Assembly: GCF_963666195.1 (NCBI RefSeq)
Contig: NZ_OY762653.1
Location: forward strand, 372,001-436,000
Source: Trichococcus shcherbakoviae
GTDB lineage: Bacteria; Bacillota; Bacilli; Lactobacillales; Aerococcaceae
Length of the DNA: 64,000 bases
Direction of reading: 5' to 3'
Shown: one piece after another, positions 14,956 through 64,000 of the stretch
Layout of the letters: every line of letters starts with the position of its first letter
Numbering within the stretch: position 1 is the first letter of the stretch
Program-made: the position numbers and the translations under genes
Notes under the pieces: model-generated
Told to the model about the DNA's origin: nothing
What the model saw: the letters and a program-made list of their open reading frames with translations, nothing else
Databases searched by the model: none

Positions 14956-17505
14956 TTATCTGCGTACTTTCTTGGTTTCCGGCTGCGCCTTTGCTTTATA
15001 AAAATAATATTTTGCGACTTCCGTGACGATCACGTACAGGCCTAGGATAAGGAACAAAGACAGCAACAGCAATGGCTGGATCGGTTCAATGCCTAGGTAT
15101 TGATGGAACGGCAGGTATGGGATCAGCAAAGTGATGATCCCCACAACAATCGATGAATACAGCAAGAGTGGGGCAGGTTTGCTCATATAGAACCGCTTAT
15201 GCGTACGCATAACCAACAACACAAGCAATTCCGTGAGCACTGAAAAAGTGAACCAGCTGCTCTGGAATAATCCGTGCTTGGCATCAAAACCGATGAACAG
15301 GAGGGCAAACGTCAGATAGTCAAAAACCGAACTGACCAGCCCAAAAACAAACATAAAATCACGGATGAAATGGATATCCCATCTGAGCGGCTTTTCCACT
15401 GTTTCCTTGTCCACACTATCATTGGCGATGGTTATCGCAGGGAAATCGCTCAAAAAATTGATCAAGAGAATTTGTTTGGGGAGCAGCGGCAGGAACGGCA
15501 GGAATAAGGATGCCCCCGCCATGCTGAACATATTGCCGAAATTGGCGCTGGTAGTGACTTGGATGTATTTGAGCGTGTTGGCAAAGGTTGTCCTTCCCAT
15601 CACAATACCGCGGCTCAGTACTTCCAGATTTTTTTCCATCAATACGAAATCAGCCGATTCCTTAGCCACATCGACGGCATTGTCCACTGATAGGCTGACG
15701 TCTGCCGCATGCAGCGCCGGCACATCGTTAATGCCATCGCCCATATAGCCAACCACATGATTTTTCTTTTTCAGGGCGAGGATAATCCGCTCCTTCTGGT
15801 TGGGATCCACTTCAGCGAATACCGTAGTGGCTTCGATTTTAGCCCACAAGGCTTCATCACTCAGCTTCATCAGTTCCGATCCGGTCAGTACGCCCGTGAC
15901 TTTCAGGCCTACCGCCTCAGCAGTGTGCAAAGCGATCAACTTATTGTCCCCGGTAATTATCCGCAGACTGACCCCTTTACGCGCCAAGTCTAAAATGGTC
16001 TGCGAAACATCCGCTTTCGGATGGTCAAATAGGAGCAGAAAGCCCATCAGTACCATTTCCTTTTCGTCTTCAACTGTATATTTTTCCTGCATGGGCACCA
16101 TTTTTTGGGCGACTGCGATGATGCGGATTCCTTGACCGCTCCACTCTTCGTAGTGTTGTTGGATACCGGACCGGATCTGTTCATCCATTGCGCTTTCGGC
16201 GCCAGCGATTTCAACCCGCGTGCAGATGGCGAGGATGCTGTTCAAGGCCCCTTTCACGATCATTATGCACTGTCCATCCTCCTGAACAATGACACTCAGT
16301 CGTTCCCGGTTGAAATCAAAAGGGATTTCCCCTTGTTTTTTGACGGCACTGATATCCACATCTTTGGATGCACTGATTGCCTCATCCAGCGTATTTGCCA
16401 TACCTGTCTGAAGACTTGCATTCAAGTACGCAAGCCTGAACACTTCATCGGAGGGCTGCCCAGAAACATCAGCCGCGCCATCGAGCCGGATGCTCCCCTC
16501 CGTCAAGGTTCCGGTTTTATCGGTACAAAGGATATCCATGCTGCCAAAATTTTCGATTGCGGTCAGGCGGCGGACGATAACCCCTTCCTTCGCCATGATG
16601 CGGGATCCTTTCGAAAGCGTAATGCTGATGATTGCCGGCAGAAGCTGCGGCGTAATCCCAACTGCAAGTGCAACCGAGAAAAGTAGGGCTTCGATGGCTG
16701 GCCTGTTCATGATAACGTTGATCGCGAAAACGACAAGGGTAAGGACGAGCATGATTTCAGTCAATAAATAACCGAACCGTCTTACTCCGCGCTCAAATTC
16801 CGTTTCCGGCGGGCGCAAAGAAAGCTTATCGGATATTTGCCCGAATTCGGTGCTTGCTCCCGTTTCCACCACTAACATCGTGGCGTTTCCGCTCTGTACA
16901 CTCGTGCCCGTGTAGACACAATTGGTGCGTTCCTCCAGACTGGCGTCTTCCCTGACCTTGTCCGGCTTCTTTTCTGATGGCTGGGATTCTCCGGTGAGGA
17001 TGGACTGGTTGACGAATAAATTCGAGCTATCCAGAATCAACCCGTCCGCAACAATGAGGCTGCCGGTAGAAAGTTTGATGATATCGCCCGGAACTACCTC
17101 TTTTGATGCAATCTCGATCGGCTTACCATCGCGAAGGACGACGGACTTTGCTTGCACTTTCGCCCGGAGTTCCGCTATGACATTGCCCGCGGTATATTCC
17201 TGATAAAAGCTGAGAGTCGCGCTCGCCAAGACGATGGCCAGGATGATCATCGCATCAATCCACTCCCCTGTTGCAGCCGATATTCCGGTTGCAACAATCA
17301 ATATGAGGATGATCGGATTTTTGAACTGGCTGAGGAAGGCCCTGAGTTGCGTATCTTTTTTCTGTTTTCTTAGCGTGTTTCGACCGTGCTGCTTCAACCT
17401 TACTGCCGCTTCCTCAGCAGCCAGACCGTTTACGTTGGAATGAACAGCTTCCAACATCTCTTCCGGAGTCACACTCCAATAGTTGATTCTCACTTTTTCT
17501 TGCAT
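14956..17505 (-). CDS. mgtA: magnesium-translocating P-type ATPase (MgtA/MgtB type)
   Basis: This 849-residue type III P-type ATPase imports Mg2+ using ATP. It has TGES in the actuator domain near residue 173, the phosphorylated Asp in CTDKTGTL at about residue 329, and the hinge GDGINDVPAL near residue 600. Two N-terminal, two central and about six C-terminal membrane segments complete the fold. The N-terminus is shorter than in enterobacterial MgtA. ATG 17505 follows AAGGTCG; a slightly longer frame is less likely. I see no clear M-box riboswitch in the leader. It stands alone, divergent from apbE. Confidence 0.92.
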   Translation of the reverse strand: MQEKVRINYWSVTPEEMLEAVHSNVNGLAAEEAAVRLKQHGRNTLRKQKKDTQLRAFLSQFKNPIILILIVATGISAATGEWIDAMIILAIVLASATLSFYQEYTAGNVIAELRAKVQAKSVVLRDGKPIEIASKEVVPGDIIKLSTGSLIVADGLILDSSNLFVNQSILTGESQPSEKKPDKVREDASLEERTNCVYTGTSVQSGNATMLVVETGASTEFGQISDKLSLRPPETEFERGVRRFGYLLTEIMLVLTLVVFAINVIMNRPAIEALLFSVALAVGITPQLLPAIISITLSKGSRIMAKEGVIVRRLTAIENFGSMDILCTDKTGTLTEGSIRLDGAADVSGQPSDEVFRLAYLNASLQTGMANTLDEAISASKDVDISAVKKQGEIPFDFNRERLSVIVQEDGQCIMIVKGALNSILAICTRVEIAGAESAMDEQIRSGIQQHYEEWSGQGIRIIAVAQKMVPMQEKYTVEDEKEMVLMGFLLLFDHPKADVSQTILDLARKGVSLRIITGDNKLIALHTAEAVGLKVTGVLTGSELMKLSDEALWAKIEATTVFAEVDPNQKERIILALKKKNHVVGYMGDGINDVPALHAADVSLSVDNAVDVAKESADFVLMEKNLEVLSRGIVMGRTTFANTLKYIQVTTSANFGNMFSMAGASLFLPFLPLLPKQILLINFLSDFPAITIANDSVDKETVEKPLRWDIHFIRDFMFVFGLVSSVFDYLTFALLFIGFDAKHGLFQSSWFTFSVLTELLVLLVMRTHKRFYMSKPAPLLLYSSIVVGIITLLIPYLPFHQYLGIEPIQPLLLLSLFLILGLYVIVTEVAKYYFYKAKAQPETKKVRR

Positions 17506-53470: not shown

Positions 53471-53562
53471 TATGTCCCTCCCAGTTTGGTTATTCGATTT
53501 ACTAAAAATTACTCCGAATAGTATTACTTCTTTCACCACGAATTTCCCATTAAAATCAAAAT

Positions 53563-53624: not shown

Positions 53625-54161
53625 TTGAATTCATTAATAGAGAATATCCAAAACTATGGTCCATCAGCTAGTATCATTTATATCTTAATTCTACATTGGA
53701 ATGAATTTGAGAGATGCCTTATAAAAAAAGATAACAGTTTATTAGAAAGAATCGAGACAGGATTATTACCTGATAGTACAATATACAAATTTGGTATCAC
53801 TGCATCGTTATTGATCCTCATTATTTCTGCGATCATTGCTAGCTTTGTCTACTCAAATATATCTAACGTCTATTTATTTATAATTTTCTTTTTTGTTATT
53901 ACGGTATCGTTGAGCATCTTGTTCTTAAAATATTATTGGCATAAAAGTATGCTTCATAAAAAACTTTATATTACTGATCCCGCATTTTCTGGAGACTCAT
54001 TTTCCAAACAAAGCAAAATCTTCGTTTATGTGACGAAAGAAGGAGAGGACAAATATATATTCAGATTACATTCGAAAGATACTACAAATTCTGAGTATAT
54101 TTATGTGACAAAGTTGGAAATATTCAGCAATTACTTTGAATACACAGACCAAAATGAATAG
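53625..54161 (+). CDS. two-helix membrane protein of unknown function at the island edge
   Basis: This 178-residue protein has two adjacent membrane segments (about residues 57-78 and 83-106) and a soluble C-terminal domain of about 70 residues. A weaker hydrophobic stretch lies near the N-terminus. Codon use is markedly AT-rich compared with genes to its left, like the defence genes to its right. Start TTG 53625 follows GATGGTGA. It converges on mcrC. No family is recognised. Confidence 0.6.
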   Translation: MNSLIENIQNYGPSASIIYILILHWNEFERCLIKKDNSLLERIETGLLPDSTIYKFGITASLLILIISAIIASFVYSNISNVYLFIIFFFVITVSLSILFLKYYWHKSMLHKKLYITDPAFSGDSFSKQSKIFVYVTKEGEDKYIFRLHSKDTTNSEYIYVTKLEIFSNYFEYTDQNE

Positions 54162-54254: not shown

Positions 54255-55559
54255 TCAACTTGTAAACTGCCCTATTAGCATCCTTTTAATTTGCCCATCA
54301 ACATCCCCATACAAGTCAAGATACCGCACATCAACCTGCACACCATTAGTATCAGGTATGTCAGTTAAACTGTGAAATTCCGTCGGCAGAAATTCTTTGC
54401 TGTATGGGTAAATCAAAACTACCTTTTGAACATTCTCGCCTTTATGGCTATACCGTGTATGGTACGCATACATCTGATACAAGTCGGCTTGAGCTGGGCC
54501 ATCCGCCTTTAGTACTTTCCATTTCGTGTCTGCAATCACGGTTGTTTCATCGGATCGAATGACAATGTCGGGTCGCAAACGATAGGAGCTGCTCTGTTTC
54601 CCATGCTCATCAAATAACCAATTTTTCCTATCCTGCAGCGAAACATTGTAGTCACTCAACTTTTTGCTTACCAAATCAGACACGTAAGCTTCAAAAATTT
54701 TGTCCATAGGAAAAAGCAAGGCGAAAGCCATGCTGCTGCCTTTAAACGAAGTGAAGGATTGCTTTGCTAGTATGATTTCACACCATTGTAGCGCCTGAGT
54801 GTAGTATTGAAAGTTTCGGCCAAGTTTGATTCGCTGAAAACCTTGGTCAACGTTATGCAAAATCGTTACTTGATTGAAGTAAATCAGTTGTTCCCGGATC
54901 AGACGCTGATTGTTGAAATCTGAAGAAATATGTAGAAGATATTCCAACGCTGTCCGGATTAATCGGTTTTCTGGGCAATTAATCATGAATTCATCGTGAT
55001 GATTGTAAAATCGCGCTTTGTTTACTAGGTTGTGTTGTATCTGCTGCTTCATCAGCAATTTCCCTTTTAAGAATGCCTCGTTCTCTTCCACACCGATATA
55101 AGCAGACTTAAGCCCTTGCTTGATGATGCTGTCTACTTCACCCAAGAACATCCGGATAAAAACCTCAAACAGGTTGGTATTAGCTGTATCCAGATGTGCC
55201 ATGGAAAATGTTCTGCCGTCAATATTTTTGACTGCACCCAACATCTTCAGAAAAAGTTTCCGGACATCGTTATCCTTTTTGCTAGACTCATTCTTTCCAT
55301 GGATTTTGGGCAAAATTTCAATCGTCAAGCCAGATTTCGTTTGCAGGACACCAACGTAATTATTCGCTTGCACGCCAAGACGGATCGGTCTGAGAAAATT
55401 ATCGAGTGAAGAATCCGCCCCATCGTCATTAACGGTGTTGCCCTCATCAATGAAAGTCTTCAGCTCTTCGATATCTTTTTTAGTTACCTTTACACCTTCA
55501 TAGTCAGCCCCTGCATATAGGCGACCATATTCAGTGATTGTAACGACTCGATTCTTCAT
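54255..55559 (-). CDS. mcrC: McrC-like PD-(D/E)XK nuclease subunit
   Basis: This 434-residue partner of McrB has an N-terminal McrC domain (GLTIEILPKI near residue 80). Its C-terminal PD-(D/E)XK nuclease has Asp331 in RLRPDIVI and Asp344-x-Lys346 in VIADTKWK, so the catalytic core is intact. It overlaps mcrB by 4 nt (ATGA), so the two are co-translated. In known McrBC, this subunit cleaves modified (methylated) DNA after GTP-driven translocation by McrB. Confidence 0.9.
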   Translation of the reverse strand: MKNRVVTITEYGRLYAGADYEGVKVTKKDIEELKTFIDEGNTVNDDGADSSLDNFLRPIRLGVQANNYVGVLQTKSGLTIEILPKIHGKNESSKKDNDVRKLFLKMLGAVKNIDGRTFSMAHLDTANTNLFEVFIRMFLGEVDSIIKQGLKSAYIGVEENEAFLKGKLLMKQQIQHNLVNKARFYNHHDEFMINCPENRLIRTALEYLLHISSDFNNQRLIREQLIYFNQVTILHNVDQGFQRIKLGRNFQYYTQALQWCEIILAKQSFTSFKGSSMAFALLFPMDKIFEAYVSDLVSKKLSDYNVSLQDRKNWLFDEHGKQSSSYRLRPDIVIRSDETTVIADTKWKVLKADGPAQADLYQMYAYHTRYSHKGENVQKVVLIYPYSKEFLPTEFHSLTDIPDTNGVQVDVRYLDLYGDVDGQIKRMLIGQFTS

Positions 55560-57385
55560 GATTCATTCGCTTCTTTATGAATAAGGACTCCTGACAGGAA
55601 CTTTTTAAACTCCTCATCACTTGCAGTAGCTTTCAGAGCATATTTATTTTCACTGTTGCTGAAGAAACCATCTGACAGCTTAGTGTCGAATAATTTGTGT
55701 ACCGATGTTTCCTTTTCAGTTATGTAAATACCATTTTTGTCATTGAGTACTGCTCTTATTTTTCGGAAATCATCGTAAAAATACTCCTGCAGCAACGGAA
55801 TGATTTTATTCTCAAAAGTTCTTTTCACATCAGCAAGTGTACTGTTGTTCATGAAGAAAGCATGTCCCAATGTATGCTCCCGGTCGTAAAGATAAGCAAT
55901 TCGTTCATTCATCGCATCCAAAATGTCAGCCAAATTGAATCCTTCGATGCTTCCAGATTCCCCTACTTTTTCACGGATCAAGCCGCTGTCCGGCATCATT
56001 TCAACAAAATCAAATCGACGGCGCAAAGCGGTATCCATCATCGAAAGTGATCGATCAGCGGTATTCATTGTTCCCAAAATGTACACATTCTTAGGGATTC
56101 CAAACTGATCTCCAGAATAAGGCAACGTTACCGTAATTGCCTCAGCTGCACCAATTCTTTTCTCAGGTTCGATCAAGGTGATCAACTCACCGAAAATTTT
56201 GCTGATATTCCCGCGGTTAATTTCATCAATCACGAACAAGAAATTATTGTCAGTCCCATTTTCCAGATCCTCTTCTGCTCTTTCACAGAAATTCCGGAAC
56301 ACGCCTTTTTTCACTTCATATTGGATACTGCCATCTACAGTTTCAGCACGAATTCCTTCAATGAAATCTTCATACCCATATGATTGATGAAAGGTTACGA
56401 ACTGGTAGTAATAATCCTTTGTCTGACCTATTTCTTTAGCATTCGAAAAAACTTCTTCTGCCTCAATCTTTCCGGCATCTGTCAAAGCCCATCTGTCTTT
56501 GATTCGCTCGAAAAGATCTCTCCCGTTTCGATAAGTTGATGTTGTTGAATCCTCTGTGGCATGCTCGATTACTGTTGTACTGAGTGTGCCGTAAATCGAT
56601 TTGCTTTTTTTAGTTTTGGCGTAAGCACGAACCACTTCAGTATTCTCAATCTCCTTAACTGACAACGCTTCAAAATTCCTTTCCTTATAAGCCAAGTAAA
56701 TGGCCTCTCTCCAGGATAACCCTTCAAAATTGTAGAGCTGTTCCGAAGCTGATTGATTCAAAAGCAAAGTATCTTTGTACGTTTTCACAGCGTATGTCTT
56801 ACCAGTTCCAGGAGGACCGTATAGAATCGTATTTAATCCAATTATCTGAAAATCTTCCTGGGTAGGTTCTACTTTTTGCGAGTTGTCTTTTGGATGTGTT
56901 CTCTTGTGTCTATTTTTTTGTTGTTCTGAATATTGGATCCTTATTTCGTCACTTGGACTACCATATAAATTTAACAATCCTTGTGCCAACATAACGTCAT
57001 CAATACCCGCAAAACTTCCATAGCAGATTACCTCGCCAAATTTTTCTATTTCTCTGATGTTAATCCTAGGAGTTGAATGTCTTCTTTTTGTCTCATTTTT
57101 GATATCTTCTCGGCTTTCATAAAAACCAATTGCATTTTTGATTTCACTTTCTGGCTTTTTTTCTGAAGCATTCGGATATACGTCTTTGATCGTAATTAGC
57201 GAAGGTGTCACTTCTTCAGTCCAATATTGGAGCGCCGCCTCCTCTGAAAGACGTTTCCATGAGAATCTTTTCGTATTTTCGGCTGAAAATTCGTTCCCAT
57301 TTATTGTAAACTTTGATAATTTTCTATTTTTTAGGTCTTCATAATTCTCAATTAATGGTTTGTTCTTTTTTAAAATTAGTTCCAA
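55556..57385 (-). CDS. mcrB: McrB-like GTPase of the AAA+ family
   Basis: This protein of 609 residues from TTG 57385 has Walker A GPPGTGKT (about 190-197), Walker B VIDEINRGN (about 386-393) and MNTADRS (about 440-446), the McrB signature set. The N-terminal 190 residues should recognise the DNA mark but match no domain I know, so the target modification cannot be predicted. GAAGAAGG lies 8 nt before TTG 57385; TTG 57391 is an alternative, and a longer frame overlaps the SNF2 gene. It is 34 nt after the helicase stop. Confidence 0.88.
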   Translation of the reverse strand: MELILKKNKPLIENYEDLKNRKLSKFTINGNEFSAENTKRFSWKRLSEEAALQYWTEEVTPSLITIKDVYPNASEKKPESEIKNAIGFYESREDIKNETKRRHSTPRINIREIEKFGEVICYGSFAGIDDVMLAQGLLNLYGSPSDEIRIQYSEQQKNRHKRTHPKDNSQKVEPTQEDFQIIGLNTILYGPPGTGKTYAVKTYKDTLLLNQSASEQLYNFEGLSWREAIYLAYKERNFEALSVKEIENTEVVRAYAKTKKSKSIYGTLSTTVIEHATEDSTTSTYRNGRDLFERIKDRWALTDAGKIEAEEVFSNAKEIGQTKDYYYQFVTFHQSYGYEDFIEGIRAETVDGSIQYEVKKGVFRNFCERAEEDLENGTDNNFLFVIDEINRGNISKIFGELITLIEPEKRIGAAEAITVTLPYSGDQFGIPKNVYILGTMNTADRSLSMMDTALRRRFDFVEMMPDSGLIREKVGESGSIEGFNLADILDAMNERIAYLYDREHTLGHAFFMNNSTLADVKRTFENKIIPLLQEYFYDDFRKIRAVLNDKNGIYITEKETSVHKLFDTKLSDGFFSNSENKYALKATASDEEFKKFLSGVLIHKEANES

Positions 57386-57419
57386 ATTCAAAACCTTCTT
57401 CCGTTGGGAATTAGTGAAT

Positions 57420-59573
57420 CTAAACAGCCTCGACCTGAAGTCTCTCTCTTTCCATATCAACGATCTTTTTGACCATGGATTTTTCAGAAATATCCTTTGC
57501 GGCAGCGGTATGATCGGTAATGTATGAATCCTTTGCATAATCATCAAATACTTGTTGTTTAGTATCTAACATCTCCATCATTCGCTCATCGATGCTGTTT
57601 TCGGTCAATAGTCGATAGACAAAGACTTTTTGGGTCTGACCCATCCGGTAAGCTCTTGCAATGGCTTGTGTCTCCAATGTAGGTTTAATTTGAGGTTCAC
57701 AAAAAATAACTATACTGGCTGACTGGATGTTCAAGCCTACTCCGCCTGCTTGTATTTGTGAAACCAACACATGTTTTTGTTCTGAGGATTTAAAGGTGTC
57801 TAAAATTTCCTGCCTCTGTGCGGAGGATACAGCTCCCGTTATAGGAGTGAGCGTTTTCTCACCCAGTTCCGTGCATATTGTATTAATGACACTCTTAAAA
57901 AAGCTGAAGACAATGACTTTTTTCCCATTGGAAGCTGCTTCTTCGCAAATTTCGATGAGCCGATTCAGTTTGGGGCTTTTCTTTTTTGTTATTCCTTGCC
58001 AACCAGCTCGTCGCATCAACATGAATTCTCCGTTTCTGACTGCCTCTCGATAAATTTGGCCCTCTTCTTGACCAAACGACAGCCATTCTTCAACTTGTGT
58101 CAATTCAGGGAGTTCAGTCAATACATCTTCCTTATTTCGTCGCAGATAAACGGGTGCAATTCTTTCCTTAAAAATATTGGAGCCTATATACTGCACACTA
58201 TTCTCCATCTCCCTTGTAATGTCTGGCTGGAGTTTACCAACCAAATTAACCATTTCAGCGAGCCGGTTTTCTAACGGTGTCCCCGTTAAATAAAGTACAT
58301 TGTCACTTCTTTCAGTCAAACTATAGATAGTCTGCGATCGTTTTGCATCCGGGTTTTTCACGTAATGGGCTTCATCTACAACTAACAAGTCTATTTTATC
58401 TAAATTTTCATGTTTCAAACGCTGTATTGTCTCATAAGTTGTAATGGCTACGCCGCCTTCAACTTGCCATTGATTGAAAGCATGTTCTCGACTAGGACCA
58501 TGAACCAAAAATGGCTTCAATTCGCTATGCTTTTCAATTTCACGCATCCAATTGATTACAATACTAGCTGGACATACAACTATAAAGGCATTTTGACCTC
58601 CATACGCAAGATGAGCCATAACAGCTATAGCTTCAATCGTTTTCCCAAGCCCCATCTCATCGCCAATAAGGACTTTTTTTTGTACTATTGCGTATTTTGC
58701 TCCAAAATCCTGCCACCCGCGCAGTTTAACCTTTAATTTTTCTACCATTAATTCAGTATTTTCTATTTTCTCGATAATTTCTGCAGATAAGGAATGAGCT
58801 GGATGATTTTTTTCAAGACCAATACTGAAGTATGGTTCTAAAACTGCATAATAACGTGCTGCATTATTCTTAAAATCATCCCAAATTTCTTCTTCTGAAA
58901 AAGTTTGAATTTCCGACAGTTCTTTACGTAGCTGCTTCGTTTGTTCCCCGTATTTTTGGTTGAATGATTGGATTAATTCTAGATCAACTGCAAAAACAGC
59001 TTTTTTATCTGCAGACTTAAAAAACCATTCAAGCGTCCAACTCCATTTGGGATTGACGATTCGGATCTTATCATCTATATATCCATTAAAGTATTGCGAA
59101 ATCGCAAAAGCTTCTTCACTTATGCCTTTTTCCTTGTCTATCGGATAAACAGATTGTAATAATTTAGTATGTGATGGATCTTTGCGCTCTACATCAAAAC
59201 GGATGGATAAGTTTTTCGCTAATTCATTTTTATAGTTGCTCAGAGAATGCTGAATTACATCCTCCGTCCGATCGCCGATGCCATCGATTCCTCTAGCGTC
59301 TGTAATTCGCTGCTGCAATTGATGGACATTTGTTATCCCGTTCCTTTGCAATGTAGACAGTTTAATTCCTGGATACGCATTTGCGAAGTTTTCAATTGCT
59401 GTATTACCGAATGCTTCTCTGATTGTTTCCTCTTTTACGTATGAAATGCATTTCTTCAAATCATTTTGTTTCCGACTAAATTGTATTTGCAAATCGTTAG
59501 CTTCAGCATAAATTCCTTTCGCTTTAGCAATCGCTCTCAAAACATCTGTCTTTTTGGGTTTAATGAGGGTCAT
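57420..59573 (-). CDS. SNF2-family helicase / translocase with N-terminal HhH region
   Basis: This 717-residue protein has a helix-hairpin-helix-like segment at about 70-110 (NGITNVHQLQQRITDARGIDGIGDRT). Its SNF2 motor has GDEMGLGKT (304-312), DEAH (400-403), LTGTPLENR, and the C-terminal motifs QAGGVGLN and RAYRMGQTQ. SNF2 proteins translocate on double-stranded DNA without unwinding it. Position between a nuclease gene and mcrB in one operon points to DNA-defence work. AGGAGG precedes the ATG strongly. There is no fused methylase or nuclease domain. Confidence 0.9.
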   Translation of the reverse strand: MTLIKPKKTDVLRAIAKAKGIYAEANDLQIQFSRKQNDLKKCISYVKEETIREAFGNTAIENFANAYPGIKLSTLQRNGITNVHQLQQRITDARGIDGIGDRTEDVIQHSLSNYKNELAKNLSIRFDVERKDPSHTKLLQSVYPIDKEKGISEEAFAISQYFNGYIDDKIRIVNPKWSWTLEWFFKSADKKAVFAVDLELIQSFNQKYGEQTKQLRKELSEIQTFSEEEIWDDFKNNAARYYAVLEPYFSIGLEKNHPAHSLSAEIIEKIENTELMVEKLKVKLRGWQDFGAKYAIVQKKVLIGDEMGLGKTIEAIAVMAHLAYGGQNAFIVVCPASIVINWMREIEKHSELKPFLVHGPSREHAFNQWQVEGGVAITTYETIQRLKHENLDKIDLLVVDEAHYVKNPDAKRSQTIYSLTERSDNVLYLTGTPLENRLAEMVNLVGKLQPDITREMENSVQYIGSNIFKERIAPVYLRRNKEDVLTELPELTQVEEWLSFGQEEGQIYREAVRNGEFMLMRRAGWQGITKKKSPKLNRLIEICEEAASNGKKVIVFSFFKSVINTICTELGEKTLTPITGAVSSAQRQEILDTFKSSEQKHVLVSQIQAGGVGLNIQSASIVIFCEPQIKPTLETQAIARAYRMGQTQKVFVYRLLTENSIDERMMEMLDTKQQVFDDYAKDSYITDHTAAAKDISEKSMVKKIVDMERERLQVEAV

Positions 59574-59675
59574 CTATTATCCTCCTCGTAAAAAAATAAA
59601 AAACGTATGATTCAACAGTGTATCTCTTGGATTAATCTTCTGCTGAATCTTTGTTTTAAAGAAGTAAAGCCTTCA

Positions 59676-60428
59676 CTAATAGCCTATGACTTCCTTGTTC
59701 ACTGCCGTAATGACTTCTTTGGGGATGGTTTCGATTTCAAGCAAATAAACAGTATTCAGTCTTGGATTAAAGATACCTAGTTTATTTAGAGATTGAAATT
59801 CATCATGAATCGAGTTTATTCCCATCAGATAATAAACAAGCAGTTGAAGCGTGTGTTGAGGTTTGATATTAGCTTTTAAAACTTTAAAATCCCATAAGGT
59901 ATCTGCCGTCAGAAAGTCGCCATCTCCTGATGTAATTTTGTCTGTATAACCCCCAGGAAAAGTAAAAGAATCAAGTGTCATTGGTCCATACTCGTCAAAA
60001 AAGTTAAGGCTTCTTGTCACCATTTCTTTGACGTTAAAGAGAGTATCCTCATTTGGAACTAGCATGGTATCCTCGGGGATGAAGCCGCTTCGTAATACCG
60101 AATCATATTTCACGAGATTGATTGCTGCGGTGATTGATTCATCATCCAAATCATAAATTTGGTCTGCTAATATTTTTGCAAGCATTAATTTATTCGCTCT
60201 ATTTGCACCCATCAAAGATATTTTAAATGCTTCTTTTGCGCCCGCGCTGGGATTCAGCATAAGCCTAGTCAAGTAATCTACGGTTATTCCAATTAGATTT
60301 GGCGGAATATTTTCTGAAGGTTTAAGTTCATTGGATGATGTTAATTCCTTTGACGAAAATGATTTGGTTGGTATATAACCACCCCTTGGTTGTTTAATTT
60401 GCTCAATTCTTTTTGTGACTGAAACCAT
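59676..60428 (-). CDS. putative RecB/Cas4-like PD-(D/E)XK nuclease, unrecognised family
   Basis: This 250-residue protein has an unstructured N-terminus to about residue 40 and a helical region (45-110). Its C-terminal part fits a RecB-like nuclease core: GDGDFL (169-173; Asp171), LWDFKV with Asp180 and Lys182, then Q195 and Y199 in LQLLVYYLMG, like motif IV of RecB nucleases. It lacks the Fe-S cysteines of Cas4. I do not recognise the family. GAGGGGGAAAC precedes the ATG; hsdR ends 35 nt upstream and the SNF2 gene starts about 100 nt downstream. Confidence 0.6.
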   Translation of the reverse strand: MVSVTKRIEQIKQPRGGYIPTKSFSSKELTSSNELKPSENIPPNLIGITVDYLTRLMLNPSAGAKEAFKISLMGANRANKLMLAKILADQIYDLDDESITAAINLVKYDSVLRSGFIPEDTMLVPNEDTLFNVKEMVTRSLNFFDEYGPMTLDSFTFPGGYTDKITSGDGDFLTADTLWDFKVLKANIKPQHTLQLLVYYLMGINSIHDEFQSLNKLGIFNPRLNTVYLLEIETIPKEVITAVNKEVIGY

Positions 60429-60463
60429 GCTGTTTCCCCCTCTTTAATGTCGCAAACTTTTTG

Positions 60464-63400
60464 TTATCTCAACTCATTCTCTAACGGCATCACAACTTCA
60501 TCCAGCACTTTCCGCCATTCACGTTTCATTTCTGGACCGTATTGAAATTTCTTAGTATTAGGGTTAAGTTTCTTGTACTCTTCGAAATTTAGACTGTCGA
60601 TGATGCTGCCAATATTTGGAATAGGATCCATACCCACCACATACTGGACGGCAGAAGAGTGCAATTGCGTAACGGATACAAACCAACTATTCGCAAAATC
60701 TGCAACCCTGGTATTTTTGGCAATTGTAAAGTAATGTCTTTTCAGCGCAAAGATATCTTCTTCAGGGTCAACCTTTTTCGAGTCAATATCATTCAAAATC
60801 GCACGGTATACTTCTCGCACAATCTCGGATTTATTCAACTTCTGCATGGCCTTCTCTATATCATCACGTACGTTTTTATTGTGCGCGGAATAGGTGTTTA
60901 AAAGCTGATCGATATAGGTTGAATCGATATCATAGAGTTTGATTGGGTTATCTGAATAGAATTCGATTTCTGATAAACCAGTTGGATGAATTGGGTCAAT
61001 AGGTCCTGGGTCAACAAGGGAACCTTTTATCGTGTGGTAAAGCCCCAAGTTTTCTTCTAAGACCATCACTTGTTCCTTCAATATTTTAGACTTTTCCATA
61101 TCGTCATTGTAATCATCATAGGTCACAAGGGCTTCGAATGAATTATTCAGTTCCTGGAAGGCTTTGACAAACTCAATTCTTTGTTCCAACGAAGACTCAA
61201 CATTAATATCCGGATGTTCTGAAATGAAGCCAGTGAGTCGTTTGTGCCCCTTGTTGAATTTTTTTCTGGATTTTTCGTAAGTCGGATAAATAAGATCCGT
61301 TTCTTCCTTCGCTTCCGAGTAGAGCCTGGTTGCTTCAGCGACATTCTTTTCCATCGTGTGCGGTTTTCGGAACGAAACGATCAATCCTTTTGTTTTGTTT
61401 GGATATGTCCGATTAGTACGGGAAAAAGCCTGGATCAAATTGGCATAACTCAGATTTCGATCGACAAATAAAGTCTGGATTGTTGGCGCATCAAAGCCAG
61501 TCAATAACCTATCCACTACAATGACCAGGTCGACCTGTTTGCCGAACTCTTTGAATTCCGCTCTTTTACGAGCAAGTCGATTGTTGATGTCTCCGTTGTA
61601 TCGGTCGATATCGTCGATTGCCCAAGCTGATTTGTAGTACTGGTTATAGTCCTTGATAATTTTCTTCATTTCTTTTTGGTTATCGGCTGAGTCTACTTCG
61701 TTTTCTTGCAGTGAATACGTAATCGCGATTCTTGGGAAATCAGAGTCCTCAATCGTACGACCGGTCCGGATTGGATGTTCGGCAAATTCCCGCTGAATCC
61801 AATTGGGCTCTTTTGTCATTGCCTTAATAGCATGGTAATATTTTTTCGCCATATCAATCGAACTGGTCGTCAAAATAGCTGACTTTTGCGGACGGCCATT
61901 TTGGAAATCGAATTTAACATAAGCATTATCGGGACGGAATATCTTGTGCAGCACTTTTTGGATGTGCTCATCCCGTTCATAAACAGATGCATCCAGATAG
62001 TCTTCTTTCTCTACCGCTGGCATCTGATCAATCAAATCATTGATCCCGTCAACACTATAACTAGCATACTTCTCATTCACCTTAAGCTGATTGAAAATAT
62101 GGTTATTCAATGTTGTCTGCTGGATTGTATCCTCATGCTCAACCTGAAATCCAAGAACAGCGTTGTCATCCAACGCATTTTTTATCGTGTAGGTATGCAA
62201 CTGCTCTCCGTATTGATCATGAGTCGTACGGGCAAGTTGACCCTTGGCTTGCTTTTTGTTCTCTTCAAAAATTGGGGTTCCCGTGAAACCAAACCAAGTG
62301 GAATTAGGGAAAAACTTTTTGATTTCATCCATCCCCTCAGCACTCAACGCGCGATGACATTCATCTACGACAAAAACAATGTGCTGTCCCAATAACTTCT
62401 TGAATCGCTCTACGTTCTTGTTTTCTTTTTGTTTCTGAGCGTGACGCAAAGCTGACTCCAGTTTTTGACGTGTCGTGATGATCACCGTGTTGTTATTGGT
62501 GTCAGACAACAGTGTCTTACTTAGTTCCTTGGAACTGCCTGTTCCAACAATCAGGCTATTTGCTCGTACATTCCCAGAAGATATCCCCGTGTTGAATTCA
62601 GAAGCAAATTTTGTAAACTCGCTGGTCGTTTGATTGTCCAAGTCCTTGCGGTCTATCAGCATGATCGTCCGATCGACACCCGGCTTGCGTGCCAGCAATT
62701 TTGTAGACACGAAGCTGGTCAGTGTTTTACCAGAGCCCGTCGCATGCCAAATAAATCCGGATTTATGCTTCATTGCAGATGTAAACAATGCCTCAATCGC
62801 ATGGATTTGATACGGATGCAATACCATCAATACCTTGTTATCATTGTCTTCGCTGACGATTGTATAGTGCGCAATCAATCGATGCGCATCCGGAATATTG
62901 AGTACTTGCTTCACAAATTCATATATATTTTCAACTTTGCGGTTATCGGTGGTTCTCCAGCTGAACAGGAATTTTCGGTCCATATTCTTTGGTAGCGCAT
63001 TCGCAAAATAGCGAGTCGTGTGTTCATTTGAAATCACAAACAGCTGCAGCGTCGAAAAGATGTTATTCCGAAACATGCCTTCTTCAGCATACTTTTTAAT
63101 TTGATTGAATGCCTGATAGTAGCCATCTTTCGCGCCTGCTTGTTTCAATTCGATTTGAACAATAGGCAGCCCATTGATCAATAAGGTCACGTCAAATCTA
63201 CGTTCCCTATCATCGATGTCTGACTTGCGTTTAGCAATTTGATTAACCACCTCATAAGTGGAAATCCCCCCGCCAATGTCCTGGTTTGAATATAAAATCA
63301 ATGACATCGAGCCCAAAGATACCTCTTCACGATCAATGGTAATGCGCGCAATACCATTTTCGCCCTTCAACCACTTTGCCGCATGGAATGGCGTCTTAGT

Positions 63401-63625
63401 GTGCAACAACAGTTCTATTTTTATCGAATCAAATTCCTTATCCGTAATCGGATTCTCGCCGATTTCGGATAAGTTATTTTGGGTAATTTTCCGGCGTAGA
63501 TTCTGCCATAAATCCTCTTCTGATTTTAGGTCACTGCGATAGTTCCACTGATTATGTCCCTCACCCAGAACCTGAATCAGATTTTCTTCAATTGTTGCCT
63601 CATCATTTCTCGGAATTTTGCACAT
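60464..63625 (-). CDS. hsdR: type I restriction enzyme R subunit (HsdR)
   Basis: This 1053-residue motor-nuclease has the N-terminal nuclease residues Asp145 and Glu159-x-Lys161 (VQIELKQ) with a Q-x-x-x-Y type region near 171-179. The helicase core starts with ATGSGKT (295-301) and DECH (421-424) and continues through GFTGTP and the QAFSRTNRT motif. A C-terminal helical domain would dock HsdM. All catalytic residues appear intact. No hsdM lies in the window; an hsdS fragment lies just upstream on the other strand, so M and S may lie beyond the right edge. AGGTGGGAAG precedes the ATG. Confidence 0.92.
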   Translation of the reverse strand: MCKIPRNDEATIEENLIQVLGEGHNQWNYRSDLKSEEDLWQNLRRKITQNNLSEIGENPITDKEFDSIKIELLLHTKTPFHAAKWLKGENGIARITIDREEVSLGSMSLILYSNQDIGGGISTYEVVNQIAKRKSDIDDRERRFDVTLLINGLPIVQIELKQAGAKDGYYQAFNQIKKYAEEGMFRNNIFSTLQLFVISNEHTTRYFANALPKNMDRKFLFSWRTTDNRKVENIYEFVKQVLNIPDAHRLIAHYTIVSEDNDNKVLMVLHPYQIHAIEALFTSAMKHKSGFIWHATGSGKTLTSFVSTKLLARKPGVDRTIMLIDRKDLDNQTTSEFTKFASEFNTGISSGNVRANSLIVGTGSSKELSKTLLSDTNNNTVIITTRQKLESALRHAQKQKENKNVERFKKLLGQHIVFVVDECHRALSAEGMDEIKKFFPNSTWFGFTGTPIFEENKKQAKGQLARTTHDQYGEQLHTYTIKNALDDNAVLGFQVEHEDTIQQTTLNNHIFNQLKVNEKYASYSVDGINDLIDQMPAVEKEDYLDASVYERDEHIQKVLHKIFRPDNAYVKFDFQNGRPQKSAILTTSSIDMAKKYYHAIKAMTKEPNWIQREFAEHPIRTGRTIEDSDFPRIAITYSLQENEVDSADNQKEMKKIIKDYNQYYKSAWAIDDIDRYNGDINNRLARKRAEFKEFGKQVDLVIVVDRLLTGFDAPTIQTLFVDRNLSYANLIQAFSRTNRTYPNKTKGLIVSFRKPHTMEKNVAEATRLYSEAKEETDLIYPTYEKSRKKFNKGHKRLTGFISEHPDINVESSLEQRIEFVKAFQELNNSFEALVTYDDYNDDMEKSKILKEQVMVLEENLGLYHTIKGSLVDPGPIDPIHPTGLSEIEFYSDNPIKLYDIDSTYIDQLLNTYSAHNKNVRDDIEKAMQKLNKSEIVREVYRAILNDIDSKKVDPEEDIFALKRHYFTIAKNTRVADFANSWFVSVTQLHSSAVQYVVGMDPIPNIGSIIDSLNFEEYKKLNPNTKKFQYGPEMKREWRKVLDEVVMPLENELR

Positions 63626-63712
63626 AAGCTTCCCACCTAAACTATATACTTAATTCCCCCACAAATTATCTATTAAATTATATCACGATTGTTTCATTTA
63701 ATGTGGTATTTC

Positions 63713-63740
63713 TGAGTATTGAGTATTGAGTGTTGAGCGT
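63713..63740. repeat. four 7-bp tandem repeats at the hsdS fragment junction
   Basis: TGAGTAT, TGAGTAT, TGAGTGT and TGAGCGT lie in tandem (63713-63740) and run straight into the first hsdS codons. Such short repeats can mark slippage or a recombination junction. Confidence 0.6.
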
Positions 63741-64000
63741 GGGAACAGCGTAAGTTAGGTGAATTAGCATCCTTTTCAAAGGGAACTGGATACACTAAAG
63801 GAGATTTAAAGGCTATAGGGAAACCGATAATACTCTATGGACGGTTATACACCAAGTATGAAACGGTTATAGAAAATGTCGACACATTTGTAGATGAAAA
63901 AGAAAAGTCTGTAATAAGTGCTGGAAACGAAGTAATCGTTCCCGCTTCAGGAGAGACGTCAGAAGATATTTCAAGAGCATCAGTAGTGGCAAAACCGGGA
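63737..64000 (+). pseudogene. hsdS (type I specificity subunit) fragment without a start, runs off the window
   Basis: From 63737 the frame reads AWEQRKLGELASFSKGTGYT and on through GDLK, ILYGRLYT and ASGETSED, all characteristic of a type I specificity subunit target-recognition domain. A TGA lies directly upstream and no start codon or ribosome site precedes AWEQRKLGE, which normally follows about 15-20 residues of N-terminus. It faces away from hsdR. It is either a decayed gene or a silent recombination cassette; the window ends before its 3' end. Confidence 0.7.

What the first reader, a model, noticed from the sequence alone, without database searches (positions are those of the whole stretch)
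54255..63625. Five-gene defence operon: hsdR, RecB-like nuclease, SNF2 helicase, mcrB, mcrC
All five genes lie on one strand with gaps of about 35, 100 and 34 nt and a 4-nt mcrB/mcrC overlap. A type I restriction subunit, an orphan nuclease, a SNF2 translocase and a type IV McrBC pair are normally found in separate systems. Here they share an apparent operon and an AT-rich composition unlike the genes to the left. HsdR lacks visible HsdM/HsdS partners. The arrangement may be a composite defence system, or two systems fused by chance.
Basis: partly seen in the sequence, partly recalled or inferred. Interest (0 to 1): 0.75.

Follow-up and report, generated by a model that had tools for sequence, protein, structure and literature searches.

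The report
Mosaic restriction island, inverting type I
The five genes are real, but they are a patchwork of separate anti-virus systems gathered at a chromosomal hotspot around an ordinary switchable restriction system, not one new machine; the small nuclease among them is an uncharacterised candidate that often sits beside restriction genes.

Summary
The five genes exist at the stated coordinates with operon-like spacing. The 'orphan' HsdR is a window-edge artefact: just right of base 64000 the same genome carries hsdM, hsdS, a tyrosine integrase and a start-less inverted hsdS' that begins in the window at 63737. [quoted passage not shown] The block lies in a variable hotspot of Trichococcus (about 3-22 kb in 9 genomes). 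It is a mosaic: against one congener, DNA identity is 92% to the end of hsdR and then stops; against two others hsdR is 71-84% identical but nuclease-SNF2(-mcrBC) 82-97%. T. ilyis has GmrSD in place of mcrBC. In 395 Lactobacillales genomes the whole set occurs in two, both Trichococcus. Type I plus McrBC clustering is classical (E. coli, Listeria immigration control regions). Of wider interest: the 250-aa protein is PADLOC's uncharacterised candidate PDC-S61, with invariant D171/D180/K182 and weak RecB/Cas4-like fold matches. It lies within 300 bp of hsdM or hsdR in 14 of 54 loci, in several arrangements. That is enriched against McrC, but not significantly against the SNF2 control.

The parts
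60464..63625 (-). hsdR, type I restriction subunit, 1053 aa; partner of hsdM/hsdS just outside the window
   Evidence: HSDR_N, SWI2_SNF2/ResIII, T1R_D3-like, EcoR124_C; TIGR00348 over its cut-off
59676..60428 (-). PDC-S61 nuclease, 250 aa, PD-(D/E)XK type (D171, D180, K182, Q195 invariant)
   Evidence: PADLOC PDLC05052 E 4.5e-106 full length; 24-row alignment; model pLDDT 93.9
57420..59573 (-). SNF2-family helicase/translocase, 717 aa
   Evidence: PF00176 and PF00271
55556..57385 (-). mcrB (start TTG 57385 inferred from the ribosome-binding-like GGAAGAAGG; the longest ORF starts at 57547)
   Evidence: AAA_5 and PRK11331 below its cut-off; start
54255..55559 (-). mcrC, 434 aa
   Evidence: PF10117 E 1.5e-87
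63737..64000 (+). 5' part of the silent hsdS' (open frame without ATG/GTG/TTG in its first 83 codons); continues to L030:927
   Evidence: inverted repeats with hsdS
63740..63757 (.). 18-bp arm of an inverted repeat whose other arm lies in hsdS beyond the window
   Evidence: L216 11740-11757 with 15078-15095
63677..63685 (-). TGATATAAT, possible extended -10 element of the hsdR-led unit (seen by eye; not listed by the scan)
   Evidence: sequence; scan

Best explanation
A mosaic defence island in a chromosomal hotspot of Trichococcus, made of modules that act largely independently. Module 1 is a complete inverting type I R-M system (hsdM-hsdS-integrase-hsdS'-hsdR): recombination at the repeats, most likely by the integrase, swaps target-recognition halves between hsdS and the silent hsdS', changing the methylated motif, and HsdR translocates and cuts DNA lacking the current mark. 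Module 2, in an exchangeable slot directly behind hsdR, is the PDC-S61 nuclease plus an SNF2 translocase. Module 3 is McrBC, a type IV enzyme that would cut DNA with modified cytosine; T. ilyis has GmrSD there. Genes hsdR to mcrC are probably one transcription unit with its own promoter, because hsdS' is divergent. Shown: gene content, families, inverted repeats, mosaic joints, hotspot. Inferred: transcription, inversion in cells, phage defence, substrates.
For: Partners beyond the edge; start-less hsdS' and perfect 118-bp plus 18-bp inverted repeats, as described for inverting type I loci (PMC7394358, passages). Both flanks on one contig in 9 of 13 genus genomes with different content between them. 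Identity joints at the end of hsdR and at the end of SNF2. Set not conserved outside the genus in 395 genomes. Known precedents for type I plus type IV islands (PMC3874165; PMC10059834).
Against: Nuclease and SNF2 stay together in 3 of 3 Trichococcus genomes that have either of this type, and loose pairings recur elsewhere: SNF2 with hsdR and McrBC in G018 (L047), SNF2 80 bp behind a split hsdR in Aerococcus (L062), mcrBC behind hsdR in G327 and G335. Some functional coupling is therefore possible. No expression or phage data.
Confidence: 0.8

Rival explanations
1. PDC-S61 is a dedicated accessory of type I R-M systems: held by, or recruited to, the Hsd complex, it degrades DNA (or harms the cell) when restriction starts, stalls or is inhibited, the logic of PrrC in EcoprrI with a DNase in place of a tRNase.
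For: hsdM or hsdR within 300 bp in 14 of 54 loci, at least 8 changes of state on a 53-row tree, in different positions: behind hsdR, between hsdS and hsdM, between hsdS and hsdR, before hsdM, convergent with hsdR, divergent from hsdM. Within 10 kb of hsdR in 10 of 20 places against 6 of 61 for McrC, p = 0.0003, 0.02 after collapsing related nuclease genomes by hand.
Against: 40 of 54 loci have no hsdM/hsdR within 300 bp, several being solitary genes on plasmids. Against the SNF2 control the excess is not significant: 14 of 54 against 1 of 19 at 300 bp, p = 0.10; 16 of 54 against 3 of 19 at 3 kb, p = 0.36; 10 of 20 against 4 of 16 at 10 kb, p = 0.18. In G377 the gene sits 42 bp upstream of mcrB instead. 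22 of 50 inner branches of the tree are open.
Confidence: 0.2
2. Nuclease plus SNF2 form a two-gene ATP-dependent nuclease: SNF2 moves along or remodels invading DNA and the nuclease cuts it.
For: The two are adjacent (102 nt here, 47 nt in T. ilyis and T. flocculiformis) and stay together when mcrBC is absent or hsdR differs.
Against: The nuclease is within 10 kb of such an SNF2 in only 3 of 20 places, all Trichococcus; of the 54 loci one more, L025, has SNF2, 8.5 kb away on the other strand. Most SNF2 relatives stand without it.
Confidence: 0.15
3. The five genes are one composite defence system.
For: One strand, short gaps, no terminator-like site in the gaps; same five in T. flocculiformis.
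Against: hsdR belongs to a complete type I system; T. ilyis lacks mcrBC and G361 lacks all four downstream genes; identity joints at gene ends; not conserved elsewhere.
Confidence: 0.05

Closest known systems
E. coli K-12 immigration control region (hsd genes near mcrBC and mrr)
   Same: Type I and type IV restriction genes clustered in a highly divergent locus (PMC3874165, passage)
   Different: Here the type I system is of the inverting kind and the mcrBC lies behind hsdR with two further genes between
Listeria monocytogenes immigration control region
   Same: Hotspot with paired type I and type IV systems in some strains and helicase genes in others (PMC10059834, abstract and sections 3.3 and 3.5)
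   Different: Different flanking genes and different systems
[quoted passage not shown]
   Same: Opposite-strand start-less hsdS', repeats before the 5' recognition domain and between the two, locus recombinase (PMC7394358, passages)
   Different: Cargo genes behind hsdR; inversion not observed here
EcoprrI with embedded prrC
   Same: Precedent for an extra nuclease gene inside a type I operon (PMC3874165, passage)
   Different: PrrC is a tRNA anticodon nuclease; PDC-S61 looks like a PD-(D/E)XK DNase and lies at varied positions
DISARM DrmD / DpdE helicases
   Same: Best PADLOC models for the SNF2 gene (E 1.5e-142 and 1.3e-140)
   Different: Far below the NCBIfam cut-offs; no other DISARM or Dpd gene among the island proteins scanned

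Membership tests
Inverting type I R-M system | hsdM, hsdS and hsdR present together | tested here: met
Inverting type I R-M system | second, silent hsdS' on the opposite strand | tested here: met
   no start codon in the first 83 codons
Inverting type I R-M system | inverted repeats shared by hsdS and hsdS' | tested here: met
   118 bp and 18 bp perfect
Inverting type I R-M system | inversion and switched methylation in cells | not testable with these tools
   needs long-read and methylome data
McrBC (type IV) | McrB AAA+ GTPase/ATPase followed by McrC nuclease subunit | tested here: met
   PF07728 and PF10117, 4-nt overlap
McrBC (type IV) | cleavage of DNA with modified cytosine; recognisable N-terminal binding domain | tested here: inconclusive
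   no Pfam match in the N-terminal part of McrB; activity not testable
PDC-S61 | full-length match to the PADLOC model | tested here: met
   1-250 of 253, E 4.5e-106
RecB/Cas4-like PD-(D/E)XK nucleases | catalytic D...(D/E)xK motif and fold | tested here: inconclusive
   motif invariant in 24 sequences; best Foldseek matches Dna2 and ACE1 at E 5e-3 to 2e-2, none at 0.001 or better; 0 sequence matches in the PDB
DISARM | DrmD-type helicase over the curated cut-off together with DrmA/DrmB | tested here: not met
   67.7 bits against a cut-off of 610, and 100 against 950; no DrmA/DrmB match among the five proteins
   hsdR, nuclease, SNF2 and McrC together only in G000 and G270 of 395 genomes

The most novel reading that the evidence does not exclude
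PDC-S61 is a type I R-M-associated effector nuclease, joined to hsd loci several times independently. It senses inhibition or stalling of the Hsd complex, or takes over its cut ends, and so gives type I restriction a second layer, as PrrC does with a tRNase.
Probability: 0.2. Interest if true: 0.6.

Novelty: new member of a known kind. Interest (0 to 1): 0.35.

Why it matters
It shows how an apparent new operon can be a mosaic whose joints lie at gene ends, with a restriction locus acting as an exchangeable cargo slot behind hsdR. It also points to an uncharacterised nuclease family (PDC-S61), confidently modelled and with invariant catalytic-type residues, as a repeated neighbour of type I restriction genes, which is cheap to test. 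If the nuclease depends on Hsd proteins it would be a new case of a guard built on a restriction enzyme.

Tried and rejected
Orphan HsdR: rejected after reading beyond the window edge. DISARM membership of SNF2: rejected on cut-offs. Nuclease plus SNF2 as a split form of one longer protein: most other SNF2 relatives are 890-957 aa with about 200 extra N-terminal residues, but these showed no similarity to the nuclease (best E 0.086). Sequence search of the nuclease profile against solved structures: 0 matches at E 1 or better. Pfam on 24 members: one member each for nine families at chance level, among them PDDEXK_1 at E 0.036. Foldseek: 0 matches at E 0.001 or better. Promoter and terminator scans: 19 and 8 sites against 26.4 and 8.3 in shuffles, so no evidence.

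Rows dropped or not seen: L020 (stop inside), L017, L019 and L026 are not in the alignment. L017 gave no nuclease ORF; L181 (split ORF) is not in the tree. Of 31 plasmid records with PDC-S61 (30 listed) I opened 10, chosen to avoid near-duplicates and the distant Lactococcus/Lactobacillus rows. Of 7 plasmid records with SNF2 I opened 6. Of 24 genomes with a PDC-S61 match, the 20 with E 6e-33 or better were counted. Of the 28 closest hsdR relatives (64-100% identity; one is partial) 26 neighbourhoods were read, some on short contigs; G177 and G096 were not fetched. In one search one table had 56 for 55 McrC places; one search corrects it and adds the SNF2 comparisons. The collapsed nuclease count (5 of 13) was made by hand. 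Probability of the novel case was set at 0.20, down from a draft 0.22, after the SNF2 comparisons.
Full report
What is there. The window is G000:C1:372001-436000 of a 2.93-Mb single-contig genome. The genus is Trichococcus by inference: two same-genus genomes have contigs of exactly the lengths of records of T. ilyis DSM 22150 and T. flocculiformis DSM 2094. Gaps are 35, 102 and 34 nt, with TTG 57385 as mcrB start; mcrB and mcrC overlap by 4 nt. HsdR has HSDR_N, motor domains and EcoR124_C; SNF2 has both helicase lobes; McrB has AAA_5; McrC has PF10117. The 250-aa protein has no Pfam or NCBIfam match at E 0.001 but matches PADLOC's candidate PDC-S61 over its whole length, E 4.5e-106. No minus-strand terminator-like site lies in a gap, so co-transcription is possible but untested.

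HsdR is not an orphan. Past base 64000 on the same contig come, in order: hsdS' on the plus strand (open from window 63737), a tyrosine integrase on the plus strand, hsdS and hsdM on the minus strand, and an AAA_15 ATPase with a weak OLD-type TOPRIM match. hsdS' has no start codon in its first 83 codons. A perfect 118-bp and an 18-bp inverted repeat join hsdS and hsdS'. The two repeat positions and the silent opposite-strand copy are those described for inverting type I systems in PMC7394358 (passages read). Because hsdS' is divergent, the hsdR-led genes need their own promoter; TGATATAAT at 63685-63677 is a candidate by eye that the consensus scan did not list.

The place is a hotspot. DNA of both flanks was searched in 13 genus genomes. 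Nine, the own one included, have both flanks on one contig with about 3 to 22 kb between them. In G373 only a 52-base piece of the right flank matched nearby, in G309 the right flank matched only weakly and elsewhere, and the two incomplete genomes G395 and G396 had no right-flank match. Contents differ. The same-species genome G282 has a Schlafen-type helicase and a 252-aa gene. G361 has the same type I system (hsdR 97% identical) followed by an 860-aa ATPase. T. flocculiformis (G270) has the full set. T. ilyis (G357) has nuclease and SNF2 followed by a GmrSD_N protein instead of mcrBC. In G349, G377, G385 and G229 no homologue of these hsd genes was found there at E 1e-5.

The island is a mosaic with joints at gene ends. 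In one search the alignment with G361 runs at 92% identity to window base 60465, in the stop codon of hsdR; the next match is at 53471. With G270 and G357, hsdR is 71-84% identical in 300-base steps, while nuclease and SNF2 (and mcrBC in G270) are 82-97%, the 82% step straddling the joint. The hsdR and the downstream cassette therefore have different histories. A second joint lies at the end of SNF2, where T. ilyis stops matching.

Is the set conserved elsewhere? In 395 Lactobacillales genomes SNF2 was found in 16 (E 1e-60), PDC-S61 in 24 (20 places used below), McrC in 58 (61 places) and hsdR of this kind in 120 (E 1e-100). hsdR, nuclease, SNF2 and McrC occur together only in G000 and G270. 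Within 10 kb: SNF2 and McrC in 3 of 16, nuclease and SNF2 in 3 of 20, nuclease and McrC in 3 of 20. Among 26 of the 28 closest hsdR relatives, mcrBC lies behind hsdR in five (G000, G270, G018, G327, G335) and upstream of hsdM in G101; the nuclease is beside it in four (G000, G270, G357, G101) and SNF2 near it in four (G000, G270, G357, G018). In G018 (L047) hsdR is followed by two ORFs (one with an Mrr catalytic domain), a 68-aa ORF resembling the hsdR 3' end, a 324-aa ORF, SNF2 and a divergent mcrBC. In an Aerococcus record (L062) SNF2 sits 80 bp behind an hsdR read in two frames, in an inverting-type locus. So pairings recur while the set does not.

The nuclease. Over 24 sequences D171, D180, K182 and Q195 are invariant. 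The AlphaFold2 model has mean pLDDT 93.9 and pTM 0.89. Foldseek's best matches are Dna2 (E 5.1e-3), the Cas4-family ACE1 (E 2.0e-2) and AdnAB (E 0.12). A RecB/Cas4-like DNase is the best class, held by motif plus weak fold matches. Its neighbourhood is the unexpected result. Of 54 loci (26 of 27 from genome contigs, 17 from the order, 10 plasmids, the own one) 14 have hsdM or hsdR within 300 bp, 16 within 3 kb and 17 within 8 kb. On a 53-row tree the 300-bp state needs at least 8 changes (22 of 50 inner branches are open, so this is rough). Positions differ: behind hsdR, between hsdS and hsdM, between hsdS and hsdR, before hsdM, convergent with hsdR, divergent from hsdM. Within 10 kb of hsdR the nuclease is found in 10 of 20 places, McrC in 6 of 61 (p = 0.0003; 0.02 with related nuclease genomes collapsed by hand) and SNF2 in 4 of 16 (p = 0.18). 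Against SNF2 loci read in the same way, the excess is 14 of 54 against 1 of 19 at 300 bp (p = 0.10) and 16 of 54 against 3 of 19 at 3 kb (p = 0.36). So the link is clear against McrC and unproven against SNF2, which itself may be hsd-linked. Also against a firm rule: 40 of 54 loci have no hsdM/hsdR within 300 bp, and in G377 the gene is 42 bp upstream of mcrB.

Comparison with print. Clustering of type I genes with McrBC and Mrr in E. coli is classical (PMC3874165, passages). L. monocytogenes has a hotspot with paired type I and type IV systems and, in some strains, helicase genes (PMC10059834, abstract and two sections). prrC inside a type I operon is the precedent for a linked effector (PMC3874165, passage). 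PDC-S61 by name was found in one paper, in a table (PMC11514479, passages). I did not find its link with hsd genes in the search listings; these cover open-licence papers only, and most listed papers were not opened.

Verdict. The object is an immigration-control-type mosaic island around an inverting type I system with an exchangeable cargo slot, a known kind. The PDC-S61 association with type I loci deserves a test.

Noticed in passing
L169:5213-9562 (G377): In another Trichococcus a different-clade PDC-S61 gene sits 42 bp upstream of mcrB-mcrC on the same strand, without SNF2 or hsdR.
   Followed up: partly
L047:6836-19527 (G018): hsdR, two ORFs (one Mrr-like), an hsdR 3'-end-like fragment, a 324-aa ORF, SNF2, then a divergent mcrBC: suggests repeated insertion behind hsdR.
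   Followed up: partly
L186:3852-7046 (G309): The integrase gene of the inverting type I locus is split into two pieces with two ORFs (260 and 422 aa) between, so inversion there may be locked.
   Followed up: no
L183:7094-9097, L177:6089-7504, L215:8001-9710: PDC-S61 domains in longer open frames (667, 471 and 569 aa), possibly fusions with another domain.
   Followed up: no
L030:4794-6605: AAA_15 ATPase with a weak OLD-type TOPRIM match directly upstream of hsdM; T. ilyis and T. flocculiformis carry PLD-helicase-DUF3427 genes on that side.
   Followed up: partly
G000:C1:921568-922407: A second McrC-type protein (354-aa open frame) elsewhere in the same genome.
   Followed up: no
window 53625-54161 (+): 178-aa ORF with hydrophobic stretches, convergent with mcrC at the island's left end; no Pfam match at E 0.001.
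   Followed up: no
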